DNA from: Chromera velia
Taxonomy: Eukaryota > Sar > Chromeraceae
DNA length: 20,551 bases
NCBI GenBank assembly: GCA_018398765.1
Contig: JAHBMJ010000643.1
Coordinates: forward strand, 22,993-43,543
Direction: 5' to 3'
Made by a program: the position numbers and the translations under genes. The notes beneath the pieces are model-generated. The model saw only the letters and a program-made list of their open reading frames with translations. It was not told where the DNA came from and searched no databases. This document shows, piece after piece, positions 1 through 17,014 of this stretch; positions within the stretch are counted from its first letter, which is position 1, and every line of letters starts with the position of its first letter.

Positions 1-486
1 GTGTTCAGCTTGCTTCTTCTCCTCTTCCACTGCCAGCTCTCTTGCTACTTGATCTGCGAAGTCTGCAGACGGACAGCGGTCTGGAATCGGTGAGGAGACT
101 GCCACGCTCCCATGAAAGGGAGGTGTCAGGAAAGCCTCCCTTCTCACTCCTGGGTGCTGTTGATGATGGGGGGGCAGAGGTGCTTTTCTTAGCAAACCTC
201 CTGAGGCGCCACCTGATGGGAGCTTATCTGGGTTCACTGCAGAGGGAGTGAGTGTGTGCATCATCTTCTGCTGGCCCAGGGGCTGCTTTTGCCCTCCCTG
301 AGCCTGAGAGTGGTTCTGTACAGCCTCGTACATGAAGGGACCCACAGGCTGTTGCGCAGCTGCCTCAATCGCCTTCCGCTGCCACTCTACCGATGGCTGT
401 GAATCGAATACGACTGCCATGATGGATCCAGTCGGCCAAAGAAAGCAAGTCTGGGGGTACTTTTGTGTCTGTGGTCTTGGAGTCTT
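1..486 (-). CDS. Open coding exon running off the left edge, Gln/Pro-rich hypothetical protein
   Basis: The minus-strand frame is open from 486 to base 1 (162 codons) and continues outside the window. A methionine at 420-418 lies in good initiation context (A at -3, G at +4) and starts MAVVFDSQPSVEWQRK. The rest is rich in Gln, Pro, His and Ala, and ends with a charged helix-like stretch (ARELAVEEEKKQAEH) that could begin a coiled coil. There are two readings. Either this is the next exon of the minus-strand gene to the right (acceptor TAG at 489-487, phase 0, matching the phase of the exon ending at 788), or a new gene begins at the ATG. The acceptor has only a modest pyrimidine tract. I recognise no domain. 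The lack of stops and the coherent composition support coding; the function is unknown. Confidence 0.6.
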
Positions 487-787
487 CTATCCTACGAAGG
501 GCGCAGGCAATTGCAAGCCAGGATACGCGTTGCCTAAACTGGCAGCAAAAGAACTGGGCAGAGGAAATTTTCAAACAGGAACGCACTCAACGCAAAGGAA
601 TGAATGTTTAGCCACCTTTCCTGTTGTCGTACAGATAAGAGAGACCATTGAGCCTTTAGGTGCCGTTGTTGTTGATGAGGGTGGCATCGATCCACCATGA
701 AAACCCGTTGCCCCATACCCCCTGCCCCTGTGAAAAACGGTGGAAAAGCGTGTGGCTAATTTGAAGGTCTACTGATCGATCCCGCAC

Positions 788-1257
788 CTCCTCTCGACCT
801 CGCAGGCCATGCACCCAAGCAGCCCCCTCCTGCAACGCGTCCAGGCAGCACGCAGCGACCAGTCCCGCCCTTCTCCGCCCTGCACACGGAGCGTTCATCT
901 GGAATACACACACATGCACACGCACACACACAGAAAGAGACAAGAGGGAGTGAGAAACAAAAAAAGGATGGCATATGCATGTGCACACACACATACACAC
1001 AGAGAGAGAGAGAGAGAAACACAAAAACACAAACACACGCATGCTCTGTATGTATTGCTGTACCATCAACAGTCCACGACACATCGAGGCGAGCCGCGGA
1101 GAAACGTCCCTGCATGTTCCCTCACGGGAACAATTAAGCCATCCCGGCACCCACCCAGCCCCTTCTCTCCCTCTTGCAGCACATCCAGACAGTTTGCCAC
1201 AACTTGCTGCTCTGCATGCAGGCCATACAGAACCGCACAGAACGTCAGGCAGATACA

Positions 1258-1300
<43 letters not shown>

Positions 1301-2860
1301 CGATGCACAAACAAACAAATGCGCCACTCTGTGTGTGCGGATGCATGGAGTGAGTGAAAAAAATCAACACAAAACTAAGAAGAAAGAGGGCTTGCACAGA
1401 CAAGAGAGCGACTGGACCATCTTACCCCCTTCTCCCCCCCTGCTTGAAGTGTACATGCGATGTTGTTTTTTGGGCTCAGGGTCGGTCCCTTGGATGTCAG
1501 CCTCGATCTCTGCCGGAGAATCTTCGCAGGTTGGCGACGAACGTGAGTCTGTCGAGTCCTCAAAGAAAGAGAGCCAGGTGACGGCAGCACTGAGCCTCCG
1601 TGTAATCGTCGGAGCGAGAGGGGCGGGGCCAATGCTGGCTGCTTGAGGTTGACCGCACGCCAGTGAAGATGTCTGACTCGGCTCCTGCACATGCAGGGAG
1701 CGCAAGAGTAGGGAGAGGTGGGAAAGGAGGCATGCAGAAACGCAGCGGGGAAAAGAAAAAAAGGGAATCAAAGGGGGACTCTTCAAATAGAGGCACACAC
1801 ATGCAGACAAAAGAGTGCAAAATCGATCAAGAGTGCACTCAACATCATCATGCCTTGCTGCGTGTCAACCAGGAGAGACGGTTACAATAAAGAATGGAAC
1901 AGCTACAAAGCCCTCCCCAGAGAATGCCTCTTCGTACCTGCTCTGTCGTTTTTGATCTCGGGGTCTGTACCGTGGATGACATTGTCATCCACCATCTCTT
2001 CGAGCAAGTGCTGTTGCCCTGCCTGTGCTGGCAGGCTTGCAACACGAAAGAGCACTGCCAGCCTTGATGAAAGTTTGTCCGCACGCTGCAACCTCTGCTT
2101 CTGTTTGTTGACTACAACGATCGGCTCCGTCTTCCCACGCTTCAACTGTCTGTGTGTGCTCGAGCAAAAATTGGCTGCGGGGTCCAGCACAAGCTCCACG
2201 CACATGCATCGCTGCATGCAGGTCGAGGCGGCATTCCCCAATGAGAACCCACAAACTTGAGGACAAGCTCATCCCGTTTGCAACAAGAAAAGAACGCAGA
2301 ACACAAAGACGTGGTAGAGAAAGGCCGGCGCGTAGGAACGTGTGTAGGTGAAGAAAAGGAAAGGTCTGGGAGAAGGGCTGCAGGGGAAGAAAATTCAAAG
2401 AGAATCATGACATGATGGACGAAGAGGAAGGAGGCTCGAGAAGGGACTGACCCCTTCGTTCTTCTTTTTCGGAGAAAGTTACAATCCATACATGCAGGAA
2501 AAAGCCCCTGAATGCTCAGAGCGTACCTGTGTTCCTTTTTATTGGTCGAGCACATTTCCACCATCACCTCCACGAGCAAGCTCTGTCCCCAGTTGGCTTG
2601 TTGACATTCCTTCCACACAACCAAAAAAGGAGCTTCGGAAGGTCTTGGAAACTCCTCCTGTACTCTTTTCACCAGACCAAAGCGGGAGCCCTGCATGACG
2701 AAAGTGTACACTTCTGTAGGGAGTCCATGCACATTCTTCTGAAGCCACAAACCTGTTGAGGAGCGGCTGGTCGGTCGTGGTCGATCAAGCAACTCGACAT
2801 TCAATCAGTCAACCAGAAAGTCGCTCACTCACCCCAAGTGCCGGCCGCTGGTGTTCTCAT
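788..2860 (-). CDS. Multi-exon hypothetical protein with duplicated exons
   Basis: Hand-built spliced gene on the minus strand, exons 2860-2833, 2752-2527, 2149-1938, 1509-1426, 1211-1126 and 898-788, probably continuing into 486-1. Joined, these total 1233 nt, a multiple of three, with compatible phases at every junction. Donors are GTGAGT, GTACGC, GTACGA, GTAAGA, GTGAGG and GTGCGG. The proposed start is the ATG at 2860, just before a strong GTGAGT donor. The second exon is the longest coherent block and includes NVHGLPTEVYTFVMQGS and a helix-like LVVWKECQQANWGQ segment. The third is Lys/Arg-rich, then helical. Exons three and four share GTDPE(I/P)K near their ends, and exons five and six share VAxCLDxLQEG, which suggests exon duplication and perhaps alpha-helical (ARM/HEAT-like) repeats. 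I do not recognise the family. The 3' end of the 1509-1426 exon is uncertain, because a GTAC donor also lies within it. Expression data could change individual junctions. Confidence 0.5.
900..1040. repeat. CA/GA microsatellites
   Basis: ACAC-rich stretches at 903-930 and 984-1000 are followed by a GA run at 1000-1018 and more CA-rich sequence. They lie in the presumed intron between the minus-strand exons 1211-1126 and 898-788. On the minus strand this gives the TG/CT-rich tract just upstream of the acceptor at 899, so it may double as the pyrimidine tract. Confidence 0.85.
1252..1300. repeat. (CA)n microsatellite
   Basis: A nearly uninterrupted CA dinucleotide run of about 20 units, inside the presumed intron upstream of the minus-strand exon 1211-1126. 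It makes long false open frames on both strands (His/Thr-rich on plus, Cys/Val-rich on minus) that are not genes. Confidence 0.95.
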
Positions 2861-4006
2861 CGAATCTTTTCGTTGCCGCGCCCTTAATTCCCACCTTTTG
2901 AAGAATCGAATGAAAAGAAAAGGAAAGAACGCAGGAGCCGGAACAAGGAACGGCCACCTCTGTTTTGCCTGTTATGCCCTCTGTCAGAGTCAATTGACGA
3001 AAGGAGCTTGCAATATGATGGCCGGATGAATCCAGGCTTCACATTGAATTTCCGGAAAACATTCATATGCGTGCTTCCATCCATCCGCAATCCGACCGAC
3101 TGACCGCACGACCGACCGACCGACCGACCTTGTCTCCTCCATGCATTTGCAGGTTCCCGCAGCCGCATGTGCATGCATTCAAGTTGAAATCTGCAACAGC
3201 AACGGAAGAAACAGAAGGGATTTTTGTTGACTGCGATTCGACGTGGCCACGAGTTTGTTCAAGGATCACGTCTCCCTCCAACTTTCCGATCACTCAACAT
3301 GCCTTCACGAATATATAAGAATGTGCGTGCGTAGAGCAGTTCCTTGACACTCTTTTGAAAGGTATGGCACGCAACATTTGGACAAGGAGCTTTTCTCATT
3401 CCTGAGGCGGAAAAGGCGTGTCAGATGGTATTGTCGTGGAGCGCTGTCCCATGTTCACACGAGGAAAGAAAAGGAAAGCGGAGTTGGGAAGCAAGGAAAA
3501 AGCGGAGGAGACAAAAGCAAAAGCTGCGTGGATAAAACAGCGACTGCAGAGGAATGAAAGAAAGTCGTATATGCTTCTGCAGCTGCAAAAGTAGAAACAC
3601 CACTCACTCAGAATGATCAATGCACCCCACCACTGTGGTCGACTGTTGTTTCATGCAGATGCCCTCGTGCAGTGCTGTCTCTCGCAGGTTCCTCAAATCA
3701 TCCTGCCGTCCAAAAAGGACTCTCGAAGGCCGTCTATGGCCAACCTCACTCGTTCTTTCTGAGTCTTGCGTATCGTATCACTAAGACTTTGTGCGGGGGC
3801 AGGAGAGTGCAAGAACACCAGTGGCATATGCAAAGAGACTGGACGACGCGCTACGTGCATGAACTGCATGTTGTTTTCCTTTGCGGAGGGAAAGTTGGCT
3901 CCGTCCGACAGGAAATGCGTAGAAGAAGCAGGGAAAAAAGTTCGTCGTTTTCGAGACCTCATTCTGAGGTAGATCCAAAATTTGGTGGCAGACTCGATCG
4001 AAGCTC
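2861..4006. other. Divergent intergenic region, no firm gene
   Basis: The region lies between the proposed start of the minus-strand gene (2860) and the first supported exon of the plus-strand LRR gene (4007 or 4217). It may hold a shared promoter and 5' leaders. Two acceptor-like sites on plus (ATTTGCAG ending at 3152 and CTCTCGCAG ending at 3689) precede open stretches that could be leader exons of the LRR gene, but I could not connect them in phase. No clear TATA box or other core promoter motif was seen. Confidence 0.4.
3092..3130. repeat. (GACC)n tandem repeat
   Basis: Imperfect tetranucleotide repeat GACC/GACT, about nine units, in the divergent intergenic region. The reverse strand reads GGTC, so it also creates many false GT donors and open frames of the VGRS type. 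Confidence 0.85.
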
Positions 4007-4117
4007 ATGCATTGTTTCGGAGTCTTGTCCTACTGTTGCCTCCGTGTGAAATTGGTTCTGGCGTCGATCGTTGTTCTGGTCGGCCTTATGTCAGCCTTAT
4101 ACAATGTTTTTTCTTTT

Positions 4118-4154
4118 CCGCGCGGCCGCGCGCGCGGGGCGCGCGGCCCGCGGG
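4118..4154. repeat. 37-bp tract of only G and C
   Basis: Thirty-seven consecutive G/C bases, largely alternating CG, with internal self-complementarity (NotI-like and BssHII-like palindromes). It sits just upstream of the first well-supported LRR exon. If the reading frame from 4007 is translated, it encodes an Arg/Gly/Ala cluster after a hydrophobic segment. It could equally be a CpG-rich leader element. Confidence 0.8.
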
Positions 4155-4216
4155 TCCATGCACAATGGGCCACAGTCTCAAAAGGCTCTGGCCCGTTAAG
4201 CACTGAGGATTTGAAG

Positions 4217-6062
4217 ATGATTCGAAGAGCATGCAGTTGCATGACCAACACCAAGTCCTTTACAGCACCAAAAGGTCTTGTATATGCACTTCTTCGTGCT
4301 TCGATAAACAAAGGGGAAGGTCTTCGGGAGTCCTTGTTGCGTTAGTCTTGGATTTCCTGACTCAAGGGGCATTAATTTGGAGACGGCACACACTCCAAAG
4401 CAGTTACATTCTTCTTTCTCTCTGAGTGTCTCCCGCTTTGTTGACAAAAAATATGTCCCGATCCGTACCTAGGCTCGAGAGCTCTCACCCAGGTATGACC
4501 TTCTTCTTTTCTTCCTGCAGCTGAACAAAGGGGTTTGCGCCAGACTCTCCTTCTGATCTTTCTTTCTGAGGGTCGAAGTTTCCCGTCTCCCATTCCGTAC
4601 TCAATGTTATTCTCCATGGTTGCAGCAGAAGGGCACCTACAGGGCGCTGGAGCAGAATCTACCCAGACGAGCGACAACGTGCTCTGTGCGCTGTTCGGAC
4701 ACGCTCGCCCGAGTGCGGAGGTGCGTTGGTGTCTGCTCAAAAATCAATGGGGTCCTTAATTCTCCGTCTCGTTTAGCTGCGATCGTATCAAAACCTCTTG
4801 TTGTCGCTTTTTGATGCCCATTGTTACTTTCAAATCACATACCTGACTGCCTTCTGCAGATGATATCGGGGATTGCATCAGAGAGAAGCGGCTTTGGGTT
4901 GGCCTGGGTTCTCCTGGAGTTCATCAAAACGGTCAGCTGGAAAGTGAGACGGACACTGCCTAGTTCAATAGATGGACCCGTGCTTGGATCCGATTGCAGT
5001 CCATGCTTTTGCAATGAACTTAAATCTTTACAAAAGCTCAAAACGTTCTGTCTGCACAAACGCTGCAGGGACGCTCCCAGTTGCCTTTTGAGAGCTTTGG
5101 CCTATCCGGTAGGTTCGGGGGGTGAGGTTTGATCTTTCAGTTTCTCCTTTCGCAAACTTTCTGCCCACTAAAGTGCTTTTGTGGAGTCAAGGCAGGCTCT
5201 GAACTTTTTGTGCCATTCTCTGCATGTGTGAGTTTTTCATTCTCGTTTTGCATGTCCTCGAATCCGTTCGTCCTCCAAGCACATTTCTGTTTTGCTTGTT
5301 TTTTCGCCCAGTTGACAGTTTTCTTCCCATTCCCTGTCAACTTCAATTCCGTAGATTCCGCCTTAAAAACGTCTCCGATCTGCTGCCTTCCCTTGCAACT
5401 CTCATCGCGTCCCTGTGAGTGCATGAATTGAAGGTCTTTCTCTGCTTCTTCCGTGCCCCCAACGGTTTTCTCTGCTTCCCCTGTCTCCAGGTTTCTCCCT
5501 CGGTGCACCAAAGCTGCGATGCCTCCTCTCTGCCCTTCCCTGGGGCCCTGCAATTCTCCAAACGCTCACCTTAGGTCAGTGGAGTGAATGACAATCCCTT
5601 TTCGCTTTCTGTCTTTGTCTTGTGACCATCCCTTTTCGCTGTCTGTCTTTGTCTCTCTGCAAATTTGCTGAAAGAAGGTCCAAGGGAGCGTATTTGTAAC
5701 CTCTGCTTTCGTGGTTGTCGAAGAAGGAAGGAATTCTCAAAGAAGACAATGACCACAGACAGAAAGAAAGAGACGCTCTGCATGCAGATGCAGCCACCAA
5801 CGAAAATGCCGACGTGCTTGTCGAAACGTATCCGTCGTCGCTTCCGCTTTTCGTGCTGTCACTCTCTTCCCTGCAGGTCCTCATGTCTGCAAGGATGCCT
5901 GCCTGCCGGTCCTTCTCGATTTCCTTCTGCGCCTGAAAACGGAAGAGAGATTAGGGCGGCAGGCAATCTGTCTGAAGACTCTCAATCTCTCCAGTCAGTC
6001 AGCTCTGTTTCTGTTCATTTGCCTATCTGTGCTTTTTGGAGAAGAAAGAAGCACGTACAGTC

Positions 6063-6115
<53 letters not shown>

Positions 6116-8801
6116 ATTGCCACGCAGTTTCAAGAAAAAGGAATTCACACAGCAGTCTGTCTCTCCGTCTGAAAAGGGAGAGTGATGCAGTATTTCTGTT
6201 CGACTGCCTGTCCTTCCCTGCTGGGGGTTCTGCTCGAGTATCTTATGGGATGCTGGCATGCCGAAAAAAACCCTGCAGGAATCTGCCGAGATGAGAAAGA
6301 GCAGGAACGAACACATAGGAACGTCTCTCTCTCTCTCTCTCTCTCTCGTCTAAGGGGTTGTCTGGATAGGTCACGAACACCAGTCCCGCCCTACCCCACA
6401 AAACTCCTTTCGTGCTTGAACTTCCCCCCCCTTCCTCTTTCCCTCTCCTTTCTGCAGAGTGCGATCTAGACGACAGAGTTGATGTGATGTTTCCCCTCTT
6501 CCCCCTCTCTGTGGAACATCTGGACTTGAGTGGTCGGTCAGACAGACAGATGTCAGGGAGAGAGGCAGAGTGTCATTGAGGCAGGGTATCGACTGAACGA
6601 GAGGAGAAGAAGGGCACAGCCTGCCATTCATCCTCCCCTCCCCACACCATTGCGGTGTCTGGAGCCCCTACGAAGCGGGATCAACAAAGGAGCAGACAAG
6701 AAGTGAGACAGATGGAAGGAAGTAAAGAAGGATAGATAGAAAATGAAATAGAAGAAAAATGAAGAAAGACAAAGAGAGCAAGAGACGGAGAAATGGAAAA
6801 GGAAAGAGTCAGCAATAGTGTTGCAGGGAGGGAGGAAGAAGAAGAGGAAGGTCCACGGAGACCAGACAAGAGGGCAAAAGAGGGCAATGCAGAACCGTGG
6901 TAAAACACGAACGATACAGAAGAAAAGTCTCCCACCCTCACGGAGAAATCGGGGAGAAGAAAAATTCTCTGGATCCAAGACGATGCATCATACAGGTGTA
7001 GTTTCCCTGCAGGCAAATCAGGAAGCTAGGAAGAAACGTCGCGAGATAAAGGAAAAGAAACAAAATTCAATCGATCGATCCATCACAGAGAAAGACAAAG
7101 AAAAAACACGCACCGAATGAAACAAACATTTAACGAGAACTGAGTGAGTGAGTAAGTGAGTGAGTGAGTGAGTGAGGGCAAGAGCCGATGTGTTTGTCTG
7201 ACCTTTTTGTTCAACCTTACCACTCATTCCAGGCACACATTCCCCTTTCTTGCTGCGTGCATCATGCAGGCAATCGATTCCAGGCTCCCACAATGAAGAT
7301 CCTGAGCTCTGTGATCACACACGATCTGCTCTCGAACATTCTGAGTCTGGACCTGAGTGACAACCCCCTCGGCCCCTCGGGGGTGAAGACGATTGCAAAG
7401 GCCCTCTCGTCTTCGACGAAGACACTCCCCCTGCAGTCCCTTAAACTGGCCAGAGTAAAGGCCAAAGCGGAGGGGATGGAAGCATTAGCAAAAGCACTGA
7501 AAGCAAAGAAGACAACCTCTCTGCAGACCCTCGACCTTGCAGAGAACGAGATGAGGCCGCCAGGGTTGAAGCACTTGGTATCTGCAATCAACGCAGAGGC
7601 ACTGCCTCACTTGCGGTTGTTGATCCTGAAGAAGAATGCACTGTCCCTTGTGACACCAGGGCAATTGGAGAGAGACTTCACATCGATTATCGATCTTCTT
7701 TCAACCTGTGCGTTACAAGAAATAGAGGAGATGAACTTGAGCGAGAACGAATTGTTTGGTCCAATTTTGGGGGTGGGGGCATCTGCTGCGGCCGTTGCAG
7801 TTCCGGGGCGTTTCCCCAACTTGCAACGTCTGAATATGAAAGGCACAATGTTGACCTCTCAGCAGTTGGCAGCATTTGCAACAGCATTAGGGGTAGAGGG
7901 GGCACCGTCTCTTGAAGAGCTTATTCTCCCTTGGGGAAGGTCTGAGGAGACCCCAGAGGGTGTGGTGGCTCTCGCGAATACCATTTGTTCTGGGCATTTG
8001 TCTCGGTTGACGACCTTTATGGTCAAGCGAATCGATAGATATCATGTCACAGGAGAGGGTTTTGCGGCTCTCTGTCGCAGTCTGGCATCAGGAAAAACGC
8101 CCCTGCTGCAGACCCTCGATCTCGAGACTGTGTCAAATGACGCTGCAGGGTGTGTAGGGGGACTAGCACAGGCTATGCGGGAACGAAGGTTGCCGTCTCT
8201 GGAAAATTTCCGTCTTGATATTGCAGGAGACAACACAGATGGGAGCGTGCTAGCAGAAGTAGGCGAGGCCCTTGGGGGTGGTGGGTGTCCGTTGATTCAA
8301 AAACTAAACTTGCAATGGGAGGAAACTGGGGACATGGGGCTGAGGGCACTTGCCGTGGGGTTGGGGGGTGGGAATCTGTCGTCACTTCGGGATCTGTCTC
8401 TTGAAATTGAGTGTGGGGGGGAAGGTGACGGGAGTGGATTTGTGACTTTAGGAAAGGTTTTGAGCACCGGAAAGTTGAAATCTCTGCGCAGAGTGTCGCT
8501 TTCTTTGGGTAGCGATGCGAACGTTTGTTCTTTTTGCGAAGGTTTTTCTCAAGGAGGGGGGCTGAGTCCACCCGTGCAGGTAGAGATCGAAATAGCTGCG
8601 TCGGGCATGGCTAATCCCGCTGTAAGTGCACTTGCAGACGTGATTCGTGCGGGTAAACTATCGGGGTTGCGGAGACTGTATCTTGATATTTTTGTCGGGT
8701 ACAACCAGCTGGGGCAAGTGGGGGGGGAAAGGTTTGGAGAGGCCCTTGCGAGTGCGCAGGCAAAGTTGGTGTGTCTAACGGACCTACAACTGGACTTGTA
8801 G
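4217..8801 (+). CDS. Nine-exon leucine-rich-repeat protein, ribonuclease-inhibitor type, up to the in-frame TAG
   Basis: Spliced model: exons 4217-4319, 4521-4571, 4626-4720, 4860-4931, 5069-5108, 5491-5574, 5877-5993, 6458-6532 and 7270-8801. Every junction keeps phase and all introns are GT-AG; seven of the eight acceptors end in GCAG. The joined protein, about 722 residues, has regular LRRs that run across junctions: FESFGLSGFSLG, LQTLTLG, LKTLNLSKCDLDD and VEHLDLSGNRFQAP are each made or completed by splicing. The last exon (about 510 codons) holds many 28-30-residue units such as LSLDLSDNPLGPSG and LQTLDLAENEMRPPG, typical of NOD/RNH1-like LRRs that form a curved protein-binding scaffold. 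No kinase, NACHT or TIR domain is visible. The start is uncertain: ATG 4217 is conservative, while the same frame is open from ATG 4007, which would add about 70 residues with a hydrophobic segment (KLVLASIVVLVGLMSALY). The partner and pathway are unknown; protein interaction is inferred from the fold. Confidence 0.8.
6066..6116. repeat. (CT)n(GT)n microsatellite
   Basis: A CT run of about 16 units changes directly into a GT run at about 6101. It lies in the intron between LRR exons 5877-5993 and 6458-6532. A second CT run is at 6323-6347 in the same intron. Confidence 0.95.
6690..6870. repeat. Polypurine-rich intron segment
   Basis: About 180 bases with very strong purine excess on the plus strand (GAA, GGA and AGA units, plus a short GATA run near 6731) in the 737-nt intron 6533-7269 of the LRR gene. 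It gives false basic (plus) and Phe/Ser/Leu-rich (minus) open frames. No gene is supported there. Confidence 0.75.
7139..7177. repeat. (GTGA)n tandem repeat
   Basis: About nine tetranucleotide units, GTGA with one GTAA variant, near the 3' end of the last LRR intron. It creates multiple potential GTGAGT donors on plus, which may complicate automated gene calling. Confidence 0.9.
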
Positions 8802-9638
8802 GGACAGTTGGTGGTAGCGCCTGGGGGTGGATTGGAACGCGATCCTGGGGGGGTGGGGGGAATTTTTGAGGGTCTCGCCAGAGGTCCGAGCTGTCTGCCT
8901 GCCCTGAGATCTCTCAGTGGTTCCAGGAGGGATGCGGTGTCAACTGAGGGGGTGTTGTCACTCTCCACCCTGCTCACTAGGGGGAGATTTCCTGCGCTCA
9001 GAGATCTGAACGTAAACATAGCCAGGGTAGGCCAAGAGGGCATGCAAGCATTCGCTGCCGCTTTGTCTTCTCCGGCTGCTTCTGTGCTGCGAAAGCTTGA
9101 GCTAGGCTTCAGCCAAGCAACTGATGCCGGCAATGCCATGCAGATTTCCATGCTGGCTGTTGCACTGAGCTCTGGGAACCTCAGCCGACTAGAGGAGCTG
9201 TGTGTCTCCGCCCTCGAGAGAGTGGCAGACGCCCGCACTCTGTTTGTCGGTCTTGGTAGCGGGAAATTGTCTTCGCTTCACACTCTTCATGTGCGTCGGA
9301 GCCGGTTGGGGCCAGAGGGTGGCAGTGCCCTTTCAGAGGCAGTTGTTGCAGAGAAGCTGCCTTCCCTAAAGAGACTAGATGTGAGCGGGGGAAAAATGAC
9401 GGATGGGGGCGTGAGGGCCCTCTCAGAGGCCTGGATGAATCGAACTCCCCCCCCTCTGCAGTGTGTCAATTTGAGCGATAACTCACTAACTGGTGCGATT
9501 ACAAGTGCTCTTTTGGCGCTTTTTGGATCGAGGCAGCTGACCGCTCTGCACAATCTGAATCTTTCAAGCAATGCCGAGTTTGACAACGAATCCAAAGGGT
9601 TGCTCTCTGCTGCGTTTGCTGACATCGTTGAACTGTGA
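8802..9638 (+). pseudogene. In-frame continuation of the LRR coding region beyond a TAG stop
   Basis: After TAG at 8799-8801 the same frame stays open for 278 codons to TGA at 9636-9638. It keeps the same LRR rhythm, for example LPALRSLSGSR, FPALRDLNVNIARVG, LSSLHTLHVRRSRLG, LPSLKRLDVSGGKMTDGG and LQCVNLSDNSL, and finishes with LHNLNLSSNAEFD. There is no good ATG at its start. The repeat unit spans the stop codon itself, so the two halves were one coding region. Possible explanations are a nonsense mutation (C to T in CAG would give TAG), stop-codon readthrough, or sequence error. A 39-nt in-frame GT-AG excision (8769-8807) would remove the stop, but it would also delete a core LRR strand and is very short. 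If whole, the protein would be about 1000 residues. Confidence 0.75.
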
Positions 9639-9994
9639 TGCGCGCTTTGCACCACATGGCCCTGCATTATGTAGGTATATGACTATATACATAACTACTA
9701 GTGACGACGTTTGATTTATGAAAATGAAAAATCATTTTGATTTCAAGTCAGGCTTAGTAAGCTAGAAATAGCATGATTGATATATGTGATGTTAATTAGA
9801 AATATTTTCGAAATATTATGGTATAAAAATCTGATTTATAAGAAACTTTGACTCTGACTCCTTGAGGCTAGGCGTGGGCTTTAGTTAGTTAGTTAGTTTA
9901 GTTTATGACCTTATGGAGAACTAACTAACTAACTAAACTAACTAAACAGTTTTAACCTAGTTGGACTCTAAGAATCAGGCTAAGATTTGACTAG

Positions 9995-10220
9995 GGTTTG
10001 CACTCTCGTTTCCCCAAAAGCTGCAGCCCTCTAAAAGCAAGTGCAAAAGCCCGTGCCTCTTGCTCTTCACGCGCAGCACCAGGTCCTCCCGCTGCTGCTA
10101 TTCAGATCGAAAGTGACTCAAAGCCTCTCATGCAGAGAAGAGTCTCACAAGACGTCTTCGACGCTAGCTTCAACAAGTGCTCCTTGACTCGAACTCACAC
10201 TAACTCAGACAATGAGTTAT
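9995..10220 (+). pseudogene. GC-richer coding-like fragment inside the inverted-repeat element
   Basis: This 220-bp patch has much higher GC than its surroundings and an open frame without an ATG, giving for example KASAKARASCSSRAAPGPP followed by AAAIQIESDSKPLMQ and QDVFDASFNKCSLTR. Composition and codon pattern resemble the host exons rather than the AT-rich island. It may be a captured gene fragment carried by the element. I recognise no family, and it could also be unrelated unique sequence. Confidence 0.35.
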
Positions 10221-10318
10221 CAAACTTTTTACAGTTTTACAATTAAATTAAACTAATATAAACTAACTAAACTAAAGACCGTATATCTAGCCACATATAA
10301 CTAGCTTGATTAGTTTTT

Positions 10319-10535
10319 AGACATGTCACAGAAAAAAAAAAGAAAAAAAATCTGTAGAAAAATGAGTTATCTACTTTTTTTTTTGCCTGCAACACCTTGT
10401 AACACTTATGCCACATGTACCCGTGCAAAAGCTAAACAACCGTTGTTTTAGACAAAAAAAAAAGAAAAAAAAAAAATCTGACCAAGAGAGTTATTTACTT
10501 TTTTTTTCTTTATGATACCTAGTGATACTCCTACT
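10319..10535. repeat. Two diverged copies of a poly-A / poly-T unit
   Basis: Unit 1 (about 10329-10410) and unit 2 (about 10451-10535) share the order: A-run, single G, A-run, ATCTG, a short spacer, GAGTTAT(C/T)TACT, a T-run, then a stretch ending near CTTGTAACACT or CTAGTGATACT. They look like a diverged tandem duplication inside the inverted-repeat element. Confidence 0.6.
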
Positions 10536-10980
10536 AGGCCTATAGTTCATAATTTAGTTAGTTAGTTTAGTTTTCCAGAGAAATAATATGAACTAACTAA
10601 AGAACTAAACTAACTAAAGTCCACGACTCCATGCCTAGCCTTGAGGCTAGACCATATTTCTAGCTTTTTTAGAAATTCAATCTGATTTTTTTATATGGCT
10701 ATAAGCCTATAAGATCTTAAGACACAATATACTCAAACACAAGCAACAGTAAACCAGGCTTAAATAGGATCTCAGGCTATTTACTAATATAATACCTATA
10801 ATGCTGCTATTAATTATGCAATGTACACTATGTAACACTGGAACAACTTTGATTCTTTGAACCTAGCTTTGAACAGTTGTATCATATTTTAAAGCAGCAT
10901 TTATCACTAAAGTATTGATATAGACATTGACTAAGCATTCAATGCAAAATGTTAGGATTAACTACCTTCTCAGAAAGCTT

Positions 10981-11056
10981 TTAGTTACCATCAAATTGGT
11001 AACCAAAACTTGGTAACTAAGGGGGTCTGAGGGGATTACCACTACCGCGGTAATCT
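10981..11056. repeat. GTTACC/GGTAAC palindrome cluster
   Basis: Several copies of GTTACC, GGTAACC and GGTAACT occur at 10984-11017, followed by a near-palindrome with arms GATTACC (11034-11040) and GGTAATC (11049-11055). The same arms recur in the 320-bp repeats at 11311-11347 and 15742-15778, which links this segment to those repeats. Confidence 0.65.
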
Positions 11057-11302
11057 GGCTGTATCTGCCCACAAATATGTTGCATCGAGATTTAATATAG
11101 GAGAAACACATCTTTAAAAACTATGTACGAGTACAGTACGATGTAAAAAAGATCATTTTTAAACTTTTTTTATCTAAGTTGTTTCTATAATATCAAGAAC
11201 TTGACTTTAACTTATATATACTTACACATATTTTTAGGCATAAGAGGATTTTACAATAAATCTATCTTTGGTACTCGATTTACCCACTAATTTGTTTTGT
11301 TT

Positions 11303-11622
11303 AAAAGAACGATTACCACTGTTTTGGTTACCGAAACAACGGTAATCAATGTGACTCTGCAGGATTACTGTAACCATGAAAATGGTTACCGAGCGGCCTA
11401 ACGGCCGCTTTGGTAACCAAACTAAGTTGGTTACTCCTAACAGCACAGTATATTGCATTGAAATTTACAACCGCCCCCCCCCTTTTTTACTTAGTTTTTT
11501 GCAACTTAGTTTACAACGGAGTTGTAAAAAAATCTAATGAAAAATCTTTAGTCTACGGCCTAACAGTAGACCCAACTTCTAGCCTAACTTAATTAAGCAT
11601 TTTATCCTAAATTTTATTAAGT
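11303..11622. repeat. 320-bp direct repeat, left copy (probable long target-site duplication)
   Basis: This copy aligns to 15734-16053 over 320 bases with a constant offset of 4431, no gaps and 16 mismatches (95% identity). It begins AAAAGAACGATTACC and ends TTTTATTAAGT. It abuts the LINE 3' tail directly at 11623. Internal palindromes: arms GATTACC/GGTAATC at 11311-11347, an 8-bp stem with GAAA loop at 11370-11389, and a 7-bp stem AGCGGCC/GGCCGCT at 11392-11409. It encodes nothing convincing: the short open frame shared by both copies lacks an ATG. Confidence 0.9.
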
Positions 11623-11764
11623 GATGATGATGATGATTGAGGGTTAAATCCTAAATTTAGCGACGCCAAATCCCAAGCCACTAACAAGGCTTTGAGGACA
11701 ACCCAGAGCACACATTCATAGGGGAAGGGTGAGGAAGCCTGCATGCCAGTCGGATTGATTCGCC
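11623..11764 (-). other. LINE 3' UTR and ATC-repeat tail
   Basis: After the stop codon there are about 140 non-coding bases (minus strand), ending in the ATC trinucleotide run at 11637-11623 right at the repeat junction. Short simple-repeat tails in place of poly-A are known from several LINE clades and mark the 3' end, where target-primed reverse transcription begins. Its exact contact with the 320-bp repeat fixes the element's left boundary. Confidence 0.7.
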
Positions 11765-13088
11765 TCAACTTGCCTTATTGACAGAATGGACCTGTTTGAG
11801 ACAGTCGGCTATAGCTTTAGAACCGCTTCTAGGCAGGATTGTACACAACAGCAACACCATATCCTTCATTTTCTTCTTATTATTAGAAGTGCCCCTTCCG
11901 GTTGCACCTGCAACGCGTTGTGCAATCTGTATTCTTATGTCAATGGGCGCTCTCTGCTTTGCAATTTTGTACAGTTCTTTCAGCCTGTTCCGTTCCCTTT
12001 CTGTGTCCTTACACTCCGTTAGGACATGAACCTTATCTTTGATCACACGCAACGGGGACAAACATTTATCGTACAGCCGTTCTGGTTGGGTTCTACCTAT
12101 ATCCTCCCCTGTGAGAGCCCTCAAAAGCATACGAAAGCCTGCAGAGGACTGTAGCAGACCCTTTGGCAGAGGTTCAACACTGCACTCTATCATTTCACTT
12201 CTTGGACGCCATTTCTTTTCACACAGAAGGTGCATGGCCAAACGCTGTCTGGTCGGATTCTCTGACTGGAAAGGGGAGAGATCCGCAAGGCGGGGGAAAA
12301 TTCCGTCTCTGTCTCTAACATTCCTAGTTTCTTTTTTCAACCAGTCGGACAGCCAGGCACCCTCCACGATCTTTTTTGCCGCCCTTTTCCTTCTGCCCTT
12401 GCCCTCCCTTTTAAACTTATCCCCTACCGTGCTTGGCAATGGAGGCCACAAAAGGGAGCAATCTAATGGAACGGCCAGCCATTTTACTGTCTTAACGAAG
12501 GGTTCGCACAAGCTAGCCAAGCACTCATTCCACACTGCCCGGAGTAGAGCACGGTCGATTGATTTGATGCACTGGATGAAGCCCCCACTCAGCTTACCAA
12601 GTAGAGAACTGAATGGCTCAAGAGAGAGAGAGAGAAGGGAAGGCGAAACAAAGGAGTGATAAGAGAGACCAAAACAACATCGAACAAAACGTAATTGTAA
12701 AGCATCGAGGCAAGCAATATCTGTCTTTCTCAGCGGGATCGTTTCCAGTCCATACAGCGCAACTGGCAGCCAGAAGGCCTTGAACAAAGTAATTTTAAAA
12801 AAGGAAAAAACAAAGCCCAAAGAAGAGAGAGTACCAAATACAGCCCCCAGTGCCTTCTCTGCCGCCTCAATACGGGCTTCGACTGTCTTGCGGAGGTCCC
12901 CACCCTCAAAAACCCAGTTGCCCAAATACTTATATTTACTCACCGCTTCCACTGGTCTGCCTTCATAAAGAAAAGGGGTCCGGGGCACTAGGTCAGGGTG
13001 GGGGGAGGAGAGACGCATTACTTTTATCTTTTTTAAATTCACCTTCAGGCCGTGCTCCTTACAATAGTCCTTGAGGCAAGACAGACGT
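11765..13088 (-). pseudogene. LINE RT thumb and C-terminal region
   Basis: The same frame as the RT continues past the TAG: KRLSCLKDYCKEHGLKVNLK, then KYKYLGNWVFEGGDLRKTVE (the conserved YLG motif after the palm), a helical thumb with FWLPVALYGLETIPLRK, and a distal region containing DKVHVLTECKDTERERNRLK that resembles the degenerate HxxxxC segment of the C-terminal zinc-binding region in many LINEs. Its upstream Cys pair is reduced to one Cys (YDKCLSPL). It ends with TGA/TAA-type stop at 11767-11765. The 440 codons are intact, the best-preserved part of the element. Confidence 0.8.
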
Positions 13089-13090
13089 TT

Positions 13091-13958
13091 CTACAAGTCT
13101 GAAACACTGTGGGCAAACAGAACAAGGTCGTCAACGTACCCGATGCTTTCGATTAAAACGTCAGACAGTCTGACAGGAGTCTCTCTATCAGTATCCCCAG
13201 CCGAGCTTTGATTCCTGTTTTCATTATCGGAGCTACCAGACTTATGCAGATTGTTGATGAAAAGAAGAAAGAGGAGAGGAGAGAGAGGATCGCCTTTTTT
13301 CACTCCTCTGCCTTCTGGAAAGCATTCTGTTGCCCCATCCACCCGAGCCTTCACCTGACTATACATTGAATGAATCATCCAAACATTGGCTTGGCTTACC
13401 CCTTCCTCCCTGAGCCTTTCTAATATTTTAACGCGAGGAACTGTATCAAACGCCTTACTGAAATCAACAAACGCGGCAATCAGAGGGCTCTTCTTGTTTT
13501 TGGAGCTGAAAATTAACAAAGACAGAGCAGCGAAGGCCTCCCTTGTCCCTACCCCCTGTCTGAAGCCAAGCTGCCTTTCGTCAATTTTCACCTCTTTCCT
13601 GATCTTTGAGTCCATCAATAAGCCCCATAATGTGGATCGGGCGCCATTTGTTACAGTCGAGACTCGGCGAGCCCTTAGGGACGGGAGCAATGCGCAACAT
13701 ATTCCAGCGTTCAGGCCAAAAAGAAAAAAGGTGAAACAAATTGAAAAAGACAAAGAGCAGCAAGCGGGAGAGAGGAGAAAAACCAAAACATAACGAGAAG
13801 TGACAGGGGCTAACCCCATCCAAATCCAACGCCTTCTTTGGGTCAATTCCTTTCAGTGTTTCCTCAATCATATGTATAGAGAAGGCGGGCTGAGAAGGAG
13901 GGGAGAAGGCCAGACCAACAGGTGCAAGCGGAAGACCAGGACCGTCGAAGACCCCAGC
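13091..13958 (-). pseudogene. LINE reverse transcriptase, fingers and palm
   Basis: The first frame (13958 to about 13640) carries GIDPKKALDLDGVSP, WPERWNMLRIAPVPKG and NKWRPIHI, the N-terminal RT motifs. A frame change near 13650-13690 leads to ERQLGFRQGVGTREAF, then motif A AAFVDFSKAFDTVPR, motif B GVKKGDPLSPLLFLLF and motif C GYVDDLVLFAHS, with both catalytic Asp present (YVDD where many LINEs have YADD). The stretch between RPI and QLGFR is shorter than usual, suggesting a small deletion with the frameshift. TAG at 13091-13089 interrupts the frame, and coding-like sequence continues directly after it. Confidence 0.88.
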
Positions 13959-14762
13959 TCAGAACTGAGTGAAGGAAGATGCAGCGGGTTTATTATTATC
14001 CCCTCCCCTCTGACAGTATGTTTTAATTTTCCTGTTCCATTGCCAAACTTTCGAGGGGTCAACTGCTACTTCTCTAGCTAGTCTCTCTGCTATCTGTTGC
14101 TCGAGCTTACTCCTTTTTGCTGCAAACAGTCGAGCTCTTTCCCTTCTCAGTTTGACACATTCTTTTCGCAGAGGGTGAGAAGGGTTCGGAATATATCTTG
14201 CCTTTTCCTCTGCCTCTTTCACCTTTAAATGAATCAGGCGGCATTGAGGGTCCCACCAAACTTGACGGGTGCTCTGCTTTCTCCCAGACTGTCTTCTCTT
14301 CTTAGATGCCTTTCCCCTGTCTACCACTGCACCCACTTTGCTGTTTGCCAGCCTTTCTTCCCAGGAAAGACCCAACTGTTCCAATTGGTTAAGATAAGAA
14401 GCCTTGCTGAGGGAGTTGGGGGGGGAAGCATTCTGAGGGGGAGGTGGTTGTAGGGGAAGGGGTGGTGGGTCAGGGGGAGGTGGGATAGGGGGAACAACTT
14501 GACCTCTTTCACGCAGTTCGTTTACCCCTCTGTTAAACAAGCCGGGAAAAACCGTCTCAGAAAACAGCAGGACCGCTCTGGTGAGAGGAATCATTTCATC
14601 ATTAGTCACCGGGGAAGCTCTATTAACAGTGAGGAGAGGGGGGAGAAAAGAGAAATTCTTTTCGCCCGTGGGGGTATGCGGAGGATTAGAAGACATAGGG
14701 GGAGGAGATGAATCAAAAAAAAAAAGAAAGAGAAAGAACAACATGTTGAGGGGCAAAGTCAA
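13959..14762 (-). pseudogene. LINE linker between endonuclease and reverse transcriptase
   Basis: The frame is open for 267 codons. A Pro-rich stretch (PPIPPPPDPPPLPLQPPPP) is followed by a basic, helical region with VWWDPQCRLIHLKVKEAEEK and KLRRERARLFAAKRSKLEQQ, then VWQWNRKIK. The W-x-D/N..C and long charged helix ending in a Trp-x-x-x-(R/K)-(K/I) pattern is typical of the region preceding the RT in APE-type LINEs. It is joined to the endonuclease frame by a poly-T run at 14715-14726 and closes with TGA at 13961-13959. The same frame then runs on without break into the RT start, so the TGA is probably a nonsense change. Confidence 0.75.
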
Positions 14763-15686
14763 CTTCCAGGTTTAAAGTGGCAGAGGACCAGGCTGTTAAA
14801 AGAAAAGGATCTACAAAAAACTGATCAATCGCTGTTGTTTCTTCTCCTGCTTTAAAAAAGGTGCACGGGCCCGGAAAGGAGACATCAACACCCCGTCTCT
14901 CACATTTCAAGGACAGACCGTGGAGAGGAATTAAGTTAGAGCGTTCACAAAGACGGATCAGCCAATTTCCTTGCTCGTCAGGTTGACTGCCATGGCTGCA
15001 GGCTGACAATCGAGAGGGCTTGCAAGCATCAACTTCGTTCTCTTCTCTGCTTTCATCAGTGGGACATAGCATTCTTTCCCAAGTCAGCCCTTCTCGCACC
15101 CGAGTCCCCAGCTTGCCGTTCATGTCCCCAACCAGGATACGCAAATCCTTGAGGTGTACCTAACACAGTGCATCGATCACACCCTCTCTCTCTCTCTGTC
15201 TCTTTGCTCCCTGTCTCTCTGTCTTAGGTCGGACCCTCTAGGTAGAAAGTACACACTGAAGACATGGAGGACTCTCATGGCTGACTCCCCCCCTTCTGAG
15301 GGAGAAAGCACATTCACTGACAGACGGACCAGATTTTGACCCACCAGCTCCCACCTTAGCTGCAGTTCATGAACTAAAGAATTCCTGACTAGGATGCATA
15401 CACCCCCTGTCCTTGCTTCTCCGATGGTTACGGCTTTCCTTCTTGACCCTTCCGCTTTGATTTTCCTTCTCAACCACTCAAAGTGATCGAAATTATGCCC
15501 TGTGTGAGTGAATGTTCTTACGGGCATGGAGGGGCACTTCGTTTTAGTCAATACCACAATGTCTACCTGGCAAGCGGCCAGCCACCGCTCGAGAGCCTTG
15601 CTTCGTATGCGTGACCCCAGCCCCCCCACATTTACCGTTTTTATTGTGAGTTTCCTTCTTCCTGAAGCCATGAGACCAGACCTCAC
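14713..15686 (-). pseudogene. LINE endonuclease (EEP/APE type), broken
   Basis: The first part, 15686-15177, starts plausibly at the methionine at 15671. It contains TVNVGGLGSR, then ACQVDIVVLTKTKCP, where related enzymes have a catalytic Glu (LTET type); residue 48 of this frame is Lys (AAA, 15545-15543). The second part, 15144-14713, is in another frame and contains ILVGDMNGKLG (the GDxN motif), an IDQFFVDP segment, and APQHVVLS at the place of the usual SDH motif, where only His is kept. Between the two parts sits a CT/CTGT microsatellite (15182-15222) that encodes a meaningless RDRE run, and the intervening region is shorter than usual. The nicking activity is therefore expected to be lost. 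Confidence 0.8.
15182..15222. repeat. CT/CTGT microsatellite within the LINE endonuclease
   Basis: CT dinucleotides with interspersed GT, inside what should be coding sequence. It replaces or expands part of the endonuclease and coincides with the frame change between the two endonuclease halves. Confidence 0.85.
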
Positions 15687-15733
15687 GTCGTAAGAAGGAG
15701 AGAAAACATTGTGAGAGGATGTGGATACAGAAA

Positions 15734-16053
15734 AAAAGAACGATTACCACTGTTTTGATTACCGAAACAACGGTAATCAATGTGACTCTGCAGGATTACT
15801 ATAACCATGAAAATGGTTACCGAGCGGCCTAACGGCCACCTTGGTAACTAAACTAAGTTGGTTACTCCTAACAGCACAGTATATTACATTGAAATTTATA
15901 ACCGCCCCCCCCTTTTTTTGCTTAGTTTTTTACAACTTAGTTTGCAACGGAGTTGCAAAAAAATCTAACGAAAAATCTTTAGTCCACGGCCTAACAGTAG
16001 ACCTGACTTCTAGCCTAACTTAATTAAGCATTTTATCCTAAATTTTATTAAGT
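15734..16053. repeat. 320-bp direct repeat, right copy (probable long target-site duplication)
   Basis: Colinear partner of 11303-11622: no indels, 16 mismatches, all transitions. It abuts the 5' end of the LINE at 15733 and is followed by AT-rich sequence that does not match the bases following the left copy. The 7-bp AGCGGCC/GGCCGCT stem of the left copy is disrupted here by a G-to-A (and a T/C) difference at 15838-15840. Confidence 0.9.
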
Positions 16054-16440
16054 AAACCATTTTCATACTGAAGTTAAACAACAGTCTATAGGCTGTATAG
16101 CGCCTAACTGATCGATATTAATCCAGACGTTATAATATTTTAGTATTGGTTTTTAATACAATTAATATACAATTAATCTTGAAACTGCTTTTTATAACTC
16201 TTAATCAATTCTACGTTTTAATAGTTTTTAAGAATTAAGAGATAGCTTCTTTTACAATTTTAATGTGAACGTTTTTTTTTTCTTAATGACTTTTAAGTTG
16301 AATTAATACTTTGTCTGTTTCAAGGCTCAGATCACAGTTTTCAGGTATTTTTTCATTTCCTTCCTTCGATCAGGCTTTTTGAATTAATTCTAGAATTAAT
16401 TACCTGGCTCTCTCTTCAGTCGAAATCACTGAATCAGTCA
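16054..16440. other. AT-rich island, right part
   Basis: Non-coding AT-rich sequence with ATTAAT motifs and a T-run at 16269-16279, ending in a GAATTAATTCTAGAATTAATT inverted motif around 16380-16400 before composition returns to about 50% GC. Taken with 9650-11622 it would form one continuous island of about 2.3 kb in the pre-insertion locus. No gene was seen. Confidence 0.6.
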
Positions 16441-17014
16441 CTCCCTTCAAGTTTCTCAAAGGATCGTCTCTCCCCCTTATTTTTAGGTTTTTTCGTCCCT
16501 GTTTGAGTAAGACATCAAAAAAATCCTACGAAGCCCGTGTGGTTTACATGGTTCTGGAATTACTTGGAAGAAAGCCCAGCTGAGCATTTCAAAAAACCAT
16601 ACACCCAACCCCCCGTCAACCCATGCAAAACCTTTTTATTTCGTGTCCTCGAATTTGCTGCAATGGGTTGGCTGAAAGGCAGAATGCCCTACAGACAGAA
16701 CAATTCCGTGCACAAGCCGCGCATTGGCACAGAGTCTGCACGTCTGTCCTTGAGTTCGCAGGCTCACTTCATGAGGTAATGAGCACAGAGAGGGCGCACC
16801 CCCCCCTCCCCCTCCTCCAGAAGAAAGGGAGGAAGCCCTGCATCATCTGACAGAGGTCGGAGGAGTCCCAAAACCCCCACCAGCCTGTTCAGGAGACGCT
16901 CATTCCCCTCGGCCCTGCTCAGTCGTGCCCTACATTCCCAGGGTTTCTGTGCATGGGGGGACGCAGAGGGGGCATCATGGGAGTCAACGAAGGCGCTGTC
17001 AGGAAGGTGCCCTG
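16441..17014. other. No firm gene; possible 3' UTR of the RING gene
   Basis: Open frames exist on both strands here (plus 16537-16779, minus 17126-16764), but neither shows a recognised motif. On the minus strand the stretch follows the proposed stop of the RING-H2 gene. An alternative frame of its last exon would read through 16764 (LCGVHRFGGGIPLLFWTV and onward), but splice phase favours the stop at 17015. Confidence 0.35.

What the first reader, a model, noticed from the sequence alone, without database searches (positions are those of the whole stretch)
11303..16053. All 16 differences between the paired repeats are transitions, mostly at CpA: RIP-like signature
Aligning the two 320-bp copies by hand gives 16 mismatches, zero transversions and zero indels. 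Read as C-to-T on either strand, 12 of 16 fall at CpA (2 at CpG, 2 at CpT). C-to-T change at CpA in duplicated sequence is the hallmark of repeat-induced point mutation, established in Neurospora and related fungi. Neutral ageing should also leave transversions and indels. If this genome is not fungal, this would point to an undescribed duplication-sensing or CpA-methylation/deamination process that acted on the duplicated target site.
Basis: partly seen in the sequence, partly recalled or inferred. Interest (0 to 1): 0.82.

Follow-up and report, generated by a model that had tools for sequence, protein, structure and literature searches.

The report
Repeat-targeted C-to-T decay in an alga
Copies of mobile DNA in this alga, a likely relative of malaria parasites, mostly change by C turning into T, which suggests that the cell chemically marks its repeated DNA and that the mark slowly erodes it.

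Summary
In detail: two flush 320-bp copies flank a LINE, 16 differences, all transitions, no indel. The context count is slightly off: 9 clear CpA, 2 CpG, 2 CpT, 1 CpC and one adjacent CA/TG pair. The genome is probably the chromerid alga Chromera velia, not a fungus. The signature is shared by other repeats: in 30 copies of the LINE, C>T/G>A number 1785 against 131 in reverse, equal on both strands, with rates CpG > CpA > CpT > CpC. A second element family agrees. Duplication and LINE carry similar per-cytosine loads, 6.3% and 6.2%. Hits show no clustering, strand runs or excess sharing. A tubulin gene pair has ts/tv near 1. CpG above CpA, no bursts, and tolerated gene duplicates argue against RIP proper. 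I favour cytosine methylation of repeats followed by deamination. An SRA-domain gene supports this, but the one methyltransferase search answered gave only DNMT2-like genes. Methylation itself is untested, no true single-copy control was possible, and one identical 237-bp duplication (L039) does not fit easily.

The parts
11303..11622 (+). Left copy of the 320-bp target duplication; its first 150 bp are the end of an older dispersed element, the other 170 bp matched nothing else among the 40 candidates scored (of 127), apart from overhangs of up to 21 bases
15734..16053 (+). Right copy of the 320-bp target duplication, 16 transitions from the left copy
11623..15733 (-). 5'-truncated, broken LINE (non-LTR retrotransposon) ending in a (TCA)n tail; its insertion made the duplication. 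662 first-look candidates in the genome, 40 scored
13091..13846 (-). Reverse transcriptase fragment of the LINE (PF00078, E 1.6e-14)
15177..15686 (-). AP-endonuclease-like fragment of the LINE (PF03372, E 2.6e-4, below the Pfam cut-off)
10950..11452 (+). Dispersed ~503-bp element with sharp ends and short inverted termini, the target of the LINE; its copies carry the same C>T bias
16054..16700 (+). Flank of the right duplicate, only its own match in the genome; 16054-16600 is 32% GC

Best explanation
A LINE inserted into the end of an older dispersed element and duplicated 320 bp of target DNA. Since then both duplicates and the LINE have decayed through a process that affects the repeats examined in this genome: cytosines in repeats are probably methylated by a C5-methyltransferase that prefers CpG, then CpA, then CpT and CpC, and spontaneous deamination of 5-methylcytosine slowly turns them into T on both strands. 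Shown: the directional C>T/G>A excess, equal on both strands, with next-base preference, in two repeat families and consistent with the duplication; no clustering or strand runs; contrast with a tubulin gene pair. Inferred: that the marked base is 5-methylcytosine, that the marking is aimed at transposons or their chromatin rather than at duplication as such, that the hits came gradually, and which enzyme makes the mark.
For: LINE, 30 copies, 2996 columns: C>T 851 and G>A 934 against T>C 67 and A>G 64, at columns with 70% agreement and unchanged neighbours. Counting each column once: C>T-type change in 945 of 1519 C/G columns, the reverse in 141 of 1477 A/T columns, 202 transversion types. Context CG .093, CA .066, CT .034, CC .025; CHG .038, CHH .042; the preceding base has a smaller effect, up to 2.7-fold within CpT. 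Second family, 15 copies: C>T/G>A 161 against 38; CG .099, CA .082, CT .059, CC .035 (70% level). Window LINE: 93 C>T/G>A at 1511 C/G sites against the majority of the 30 copies (.0615); duplicates: 16 over 2x126 inferred C sites (.0635). Hits are not clustered or strand-coordinated against 300 permutations. Sharing of C>T between copies does not exceed independence (2920 observed, 3721 expected). C>T load rises with private transversions (rho .53, P .003). The duplicated target was not reverse-transcribed, so reverse-transcriptase error and RNA editing cannot explain it. A following-base preference is typical of C5-methyltransferases (recalled). SRA-domain gene. Tubulin pair at 230 fourfold sites: 27 transitions, 25 transversions.
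Against: No methylation data were available. PF00145 gave only DNMT2-like genes (L051, L052/L053; L054 weakly), and DNMT2 mainly methylates tRNA (recalled); no DNMT1, DNMT3 or DNMT5 was seen, though short exons may be missed. The best single structure match of the SRA frame is a bacterial restriction enzyme (TagI, 2.2e-9), just ahead of UHRF2 (2.7e-9). L039 has a 237-bp duplication without a difference although its LINE body carries 30 C>T at 830 C/G sites against its subfamily consensus, about 5 expected. The two closest LHC gene pairs are also transition-only or nearly so (8/0 and 5/1). The tubulin pair shows a mild order of its own: next base G .052, A .035, C .026, T .021. Private LINE changes alone give 507 transitions to 180 transversions, and the second family has ts/tv 4.5, or 3.0 at the 90% level. 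C>T hits per site are overdispersed even within one context (CpA mean 1.85, variance 3.23), so hot sites or shared descent remain. C>T load does not follow all transversions (rho .05).
Confidence: 0.55

Rival explanations
1. A RIP-like process outside fungi: duplicated DNA is recognised by homology and its cytosines are mutated enzymatically, with CpA among the preferred sites.
For: Repeats are hit, including the second half of the duplication, which had no other match and holds 11 of the 16 differences, while a tubulin gene pair is not. CpA is the commonest context in the 320-bp pair. The dispersed element and the second half of the duplication have RIP-like composition (TpA/CpA odds 1.07/.93 and .98/.65) against .32/1.22 at 1-7100; the LINE itself is intermediate.53/1.05.
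Against: CpG is hit more than CpA. No clusters or strand runs. LHC genes at 95 to 99% identity over 551 to 690 bp coexist without CpA excess: CpA in 2 of 21, 2 of 8 and 0 of 5 scorable transitions. No RID- or DIM-2-type methyltransferase seen, inconclusive. The L039 237-bp duplication is unmutated.
Confidence: 0.16
2. A genome-wide C>T mutation bias, not aimed at repeats; repeats show it only because they are unconstrained.
For: No direct single-copy control was possible. CpG is mildly depleted outside the repeats too (odds .70 at 1-7100). 3' flanks of LINE copies are AT-rich near the insertion, 34% GC rising to 50% over 1.5 kb in 27 of 29 loci, and a flank with no other match is 32% GC.
Against: Fourfold sites of the tubulin pair have ts/tv of about 1. 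The stretch 1-7100 has 51% GC and TpA odds of .32, far from the roughly 7% GC to which the measured C>T and T>C rates would drive neutral DNA (inference, transversions ignored); but that stretch holds CA microsatellites, parts of it match a gene family, and 1-2799 was not searched.
Confidence: 0.17
3. Direct deamination of unmethylated cytosine in single-stranded DNA by an AID/APOBEC-type deaminase.
For: C>T on both strands; a modest preceding-base effect within CpT and CpC.
Against: Such enzymes read the preceding bases and leave strand-coordinated clusters (recalled); here the following base dominates and there are no clusters.
Confidence: 0.04
4. Chance or selective reading of one pair.
For: The pair holds only 16 sites and the context was chosen after looking.
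Against: The same bias in 30 copies of the LINE and 15 copies of another element.
Confidence: 0.03

Closest known systems
Repeat-induced point mutation (Neurospora and other fungi; PMC12543289, passages seen)
   Same: C>T in repeats, CpA among the preferred sites, AT-rich decayed repeats
   Different: CpG preferred over CpA, no bursts or strand runs, near-identical gene duplicates tolerated, no RID or DIM-2 seen in one profile search, not a fungus
5-methylcytosine deamination in methylated transposons (plants, animals, dinoflagellates; recalled)
   Same: CpG highest, both strands equal, no clustering, SRA-domain gene present
   Different: Strong non-CpG component ordered CpA > CpT > CpC without CHG effect; no maintenance methyltransferase of the kind usually paired with an SRA protein was seen
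Symbiodinium SymbioLINE-Dnmt CG depletion (PMC5890265, passages seen)
   Same: LINEs of another alveolate with CG loss that its authors link to methylation
   Different: There CG only; here CpA and other contexts too, and the five window LINE ORFs scanned show no methyltransferase match

Membership tests
Repeat-induced point mutation | Excess of C>T in repeated DNA | tested here: met
Repeat-induced point mutation | CpA is the preferred context (PMC12543289 passages) | tested here: not met
   CpG .093 against CpA .066 in LINE copies; CpA leads only in the 16-site pair, and equals CpG in the second family at the 50% level
Repeat-induced point mutation | Hits duplicated DNA as such, genes included | tested here: inconclusive
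   LHC copies at 95-99% identity lack CpA excess, but coding DNA is under selection and numbers are small
Repeat-induced point mutation | RID or DIM-2 cytosine methyltransferase | tested here: inconclusive
   PF00145 gave only DNMT2-like genes, exon by exon; a TIGR00675 search did not complete
Repeat-induced point mutation | Many mutations per event, strand-coordinated (recalled) | tested here: not met
5mC deamination of methylated repeats | C>T and G>A equal, CpG highest | tested here: met
5mC deamination of methylated repeats | Gradual, independent accumulation | tested here: inconclusive
   No clusters, no excess sharing, C>T follows private changes; but hits are overdispersed among sites, C>T does not follow all transversions, and private counts depend on which relatives were sampled
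5mC deamination of methylated repeats | DNA methyltransferase and reader genes | tested here: inconclusive
   SRA gene found; only DNMT2-like methyltransferases
5mC deamination of methylated repeats | 5mC present in the repeats | not testable with these tools
   No methylation data held
AID/APOBEC-type editing | Preceding-base motif, clustered hits (recalled) | tested here: not met
   Following base dominates, preceding base up to 2.7-fold within CpT; no clusters

The most novel reading that the evidence does not exclude
A chromerid alga, relative of apicomplexan parasites, runs a repeat-directed cytosine-marking or mutating system with CpG > CpA > CpT > CpC preference and without canonical DNMT1, DNMT3 or DNMT5, possibly through DNMT2-like enzymes and an SRA-domain reader, and recognises duplicated DNA itself, since target sequence with no other copy decayed like transposon sequence once it was doubled.
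Probability: 0.14. Interest if true: 0.88.

Novelty: new variant of a known kind. Interest (0 to 1): 0.56.

Why it matters
Apicomplexa and their algal relatives are usually treated as poor in or free of DNA methylation (recalled). A mutational fossil of cytosine marking, concentrated in repeats and not restricted to CpG, would mean that a genome-defence layer existed in their photosynthetic cousin. It also gives a sequence-only way to look for it in other protists: compare target duplications and transposon copies with gene duplicates. I saw no report of it, within limits: searches pairing chromerid names with DNA methylation, repeat-induced point mutation, cytosine methylation, DNA methyltransferase and related words listed none by title and start of abstract, but searches listed only 15 of 728 and 8 of 11,044 papers. 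The Chromera genome paper (PMC4501334, word counts and passages) has neither 'methylation' nor 'methyltransferase' in its main text.

Tried and rejected
My first alignment of LINE copies mixed orientations, because genome-search loci lie on the contig strand. Its flat C>T context result is void and was replaced; the part on the 320-bp pair stands.

Plant-like CHG methylation: CHG .038, CHH .042. Deaminase-type clustering: none. Long target duplications as a rule for this LINE: of 12 other copies whose two flanks I could compare (9 truncated; L056, L060 and L064 with apparent 5' ends), one (L039) has a long one, 237 bp. The first fourfold-site count used wrong reading frames and was replaced. 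LHC structure searches gave no match that named the species. PHROGs gave nothing for the reverse transcriptase. Four papers opened hold no mention of Chromera in the main text: PMC9998398, PMC5890265, PMC12344493, PMC10538959 (PMC10538959 has one mention of Vitrella that was not among the passages shown).

Selection effects: the 30 LINE copies (window copy included) are the best 30 of 40 scored out of 662 first-look candidates, ranked by similarity to the window copy. Of 39 other element matches, 18 were fetched, and 4 interrupted or partial ones (L004, L005, L012, L017) were dropped before the counts. For the flank gradient L029 (809 unread bases) and L048 (cut by the contig end) were dropped from 29 loci. 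Pooled comparisons with one window copy are not independent, so the Fisher values that rest on them are too small.
Full report
WHAT IS THERE. The two copies reported are real: 11303-11622 and 15734-16053, 320 bp, 16 differences, 16 transitions, no gap, with homology ending sharply on both sides. Between them, flush with both, lies a LINE on the minus strand (11623-15733) with a reverse transcriptase match (PF00078) and a weak, sub-cut-off endonuclease match (PF03372) in separate broken frames and a (TCA)n tail. Other copies continue further upstream than the window copy, so it is 5'-truncated. The left edge of the duplicate falls inside a dispersed element of about 503 bp (10950-11452); the duplicate runs past the end of that element into 170 bp that matched nothing else among the 40 candidates scored, apart from overhangs of up to 21 bases. 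The pair is therefore best read as a target duplication made by the insertion, not as two independent repeats. A 320-bp target duplication is long for a LINE (recalled). Of 12 other copies with two comparable flanks, one (L039) has one of 237 bp.

THE CONTEXT COUNT. Site 11327 was misread. The adjacent pair is most simply one CpG hit on opposite strands in the two copies. Without regard to the repeat spectrum the CpA excess is nominally significant (P .008; P .006), but the context was chosen after looking.

THE ORGANISM. The window is part of a 177.8-Mb assembly with 58 light-harvesting matches and an alpha-tubulin whose two best structures among 46 listed are 7tnt and 7miz, which I recall as Toxoplasma. 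The published Chromera velia assembly is 193.6 Mb with about 30 Mb of transposons, Vitrella 72.7 Mb (PMC4501334, passages). Chromera velia is the likely source; no record names it. It is not a fungus.

THE SIGNATURE IS SHARED BY REPEATS. In 30 correctly oriented copies of the LINE (2996 columns), C>T and G>A are 851 and 934 while T>C and A>G are 67 and 64, at columns with at least 70% agreement and unchanged neighbours. Counting every column once, 945 of 1519 C/G columns have a C>T-type change, 141 of 1477 A/T columns the reverse, and there are 202 transversion types. Private changes alone are less extreme: 408 C>T, 99 T>C, 180 transversions, because recurrent C>T sites drop out. Per-site C>T by next base is CG .093, CA .066, CT .034, CC .025; there is no CHG effect (.038 against .042), and the preceding base has a smaller effect, up to 2.7-fold within CpT. 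The dispersed element gives the same picture in 15 copies: 161 against 38, CG .099, CA .082, CT .059, CC .035, with ts/tv 4.5; at the 90% level the counts shrink to 33 against 25 and ts/tv is 3.0. The 5 differences of the pair that fall in this element all agree with C>T or G>A, though one (11407) rests on 8 G against 6 A.

THE DUPLICATION AS A CLOCK. Both duplicates should have been identical at insertion and were not reverse-transcribed, so their differences are DNA-level changes since then. Their load is 16 over 2 x 126 inferred cytosines.0635. The window LINE has 93 over 1511 against the majority of the copies.0615, of which 18 are private. The agreement suggests that LINE and target decay at one rate. 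Under the unpolarised LINE spectrum the pair is ordinary: P .16 for no transversion.15 for its CpA share.

HOW THE HITS FALL. Spacing and strand of neighbouring hits stay within two standard deviations of 300 permutations. Sharing of C>T between copies does not exceed independence overall (2920 observed, 3721 expected), apart from a subfamily around L029, L039, L040, L043 and L044, whereas T>C changes are shared by subfamily; but hits are overdispersed among sites even within one context, so hot sites or some shared descent remain. C>T load rises with private other changes (rho .40 to .47) and with private transversions (rho .53, P .003), not with all transversions (rho .05); private counts depend on which relatives were sampled. 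The picture favours slow, independent damage over bursts.

CONTROLS. A tubulin gene pair at 92% DNA identity has 27 transitions and 25 transversions at 230 fourfold sites; by next base its transition rates are G .052, A .035, C .026, T .021. LHC gene pairs gave 24/10, 8/0 and 5/1 transitions/transversions, with CpA at 2 of 21, 2 of 8 and 0 of 5 scorable transitions; the two closest pairs are thus nearly transition-only, and only their contexts differ from the repeats. The stretch 1-7100 has TpA odds of .32 and CpA odds of 1.22, the second half of the duplication .98 and .65, the LINE .53 and 1.05; 1-7100 holds CA microsatellites and parts of it match a gene family. These controls are few and partly coding; a true single-copy spectrum needs a second strain. 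Flanks of LINE copies are AT-rich next to the insertion (34% GC rising to 50% over 1.5 kb, 27 of 29 loci), and the flank 16054-16600 is 32% GC, so spread into flanks or a preference for AT-rich targets is possible.

MACHINERY. An SRA domain, split over two frames as by an intron, lies on contig C2797; its first frame matches TagI restriction endonuclease (2.2e-9) and UHRF2 and UHRF1 (from 2.7e-9) about equally. PF00145 gave four matches at three loci: two clearly DNMT2-like and one fragment whose only, weak matches are DNMT2 (E .035). No other methyltransferase class was seen, but the search goes exon by exon and a second model could not be run.

JUDGEMENT. The favoured reading is methylation of repeats with CpG then CpA preference, followed by deamination. 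RIP proper fails on context and on clustering; a duplication-sensing trigger is not excluded, because target DNA with no other copy decayed like the LINE. The main tension is L039, whose identical 237-bp duplicates (67 C+G) contrast with a mutated LINE body (30 of 830 against its subfamily consensus): recent homogenisation, an assembly effect, inherited LINE mutations, or sparing of short duplicates could explain it.

Noticed in passing
11303-11622 and 15734-16053; L039: Target duplications of 320 and 237 bp for a LINE; both lie at least partly in copies of the same dispersed element.
   Followed up: partly
L039: The 237-bp duplicates are identical although the LINE between them carries many C>T changes; not explained.
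   Followed up: partly
G000 contig C2797, L075: SRA-domain gene in a probable chromerid genome in which only DNMT2-like methyltransferases were seen.
   Followed up: partly
L022-L050, 3' flanks: Mean GC content rises from 34% beside the LINE to 50% at 1.5 kb in 27 of 29 loci: target preference or spreading decay.
   Followed up: partly
7188-8801: Leucine-rich-repeat gene of a large family in this genome: the search with 2800-9700 gave 102 other matches of 64-95% identity from 40 scored candidates, many of them in this stretch.
   Followed up: no
9700-10949: AT-rich stretch built of further dispersed elements, one of about 200 bp with about 33 other matches among 40 scored candidates.
   Followed up: no
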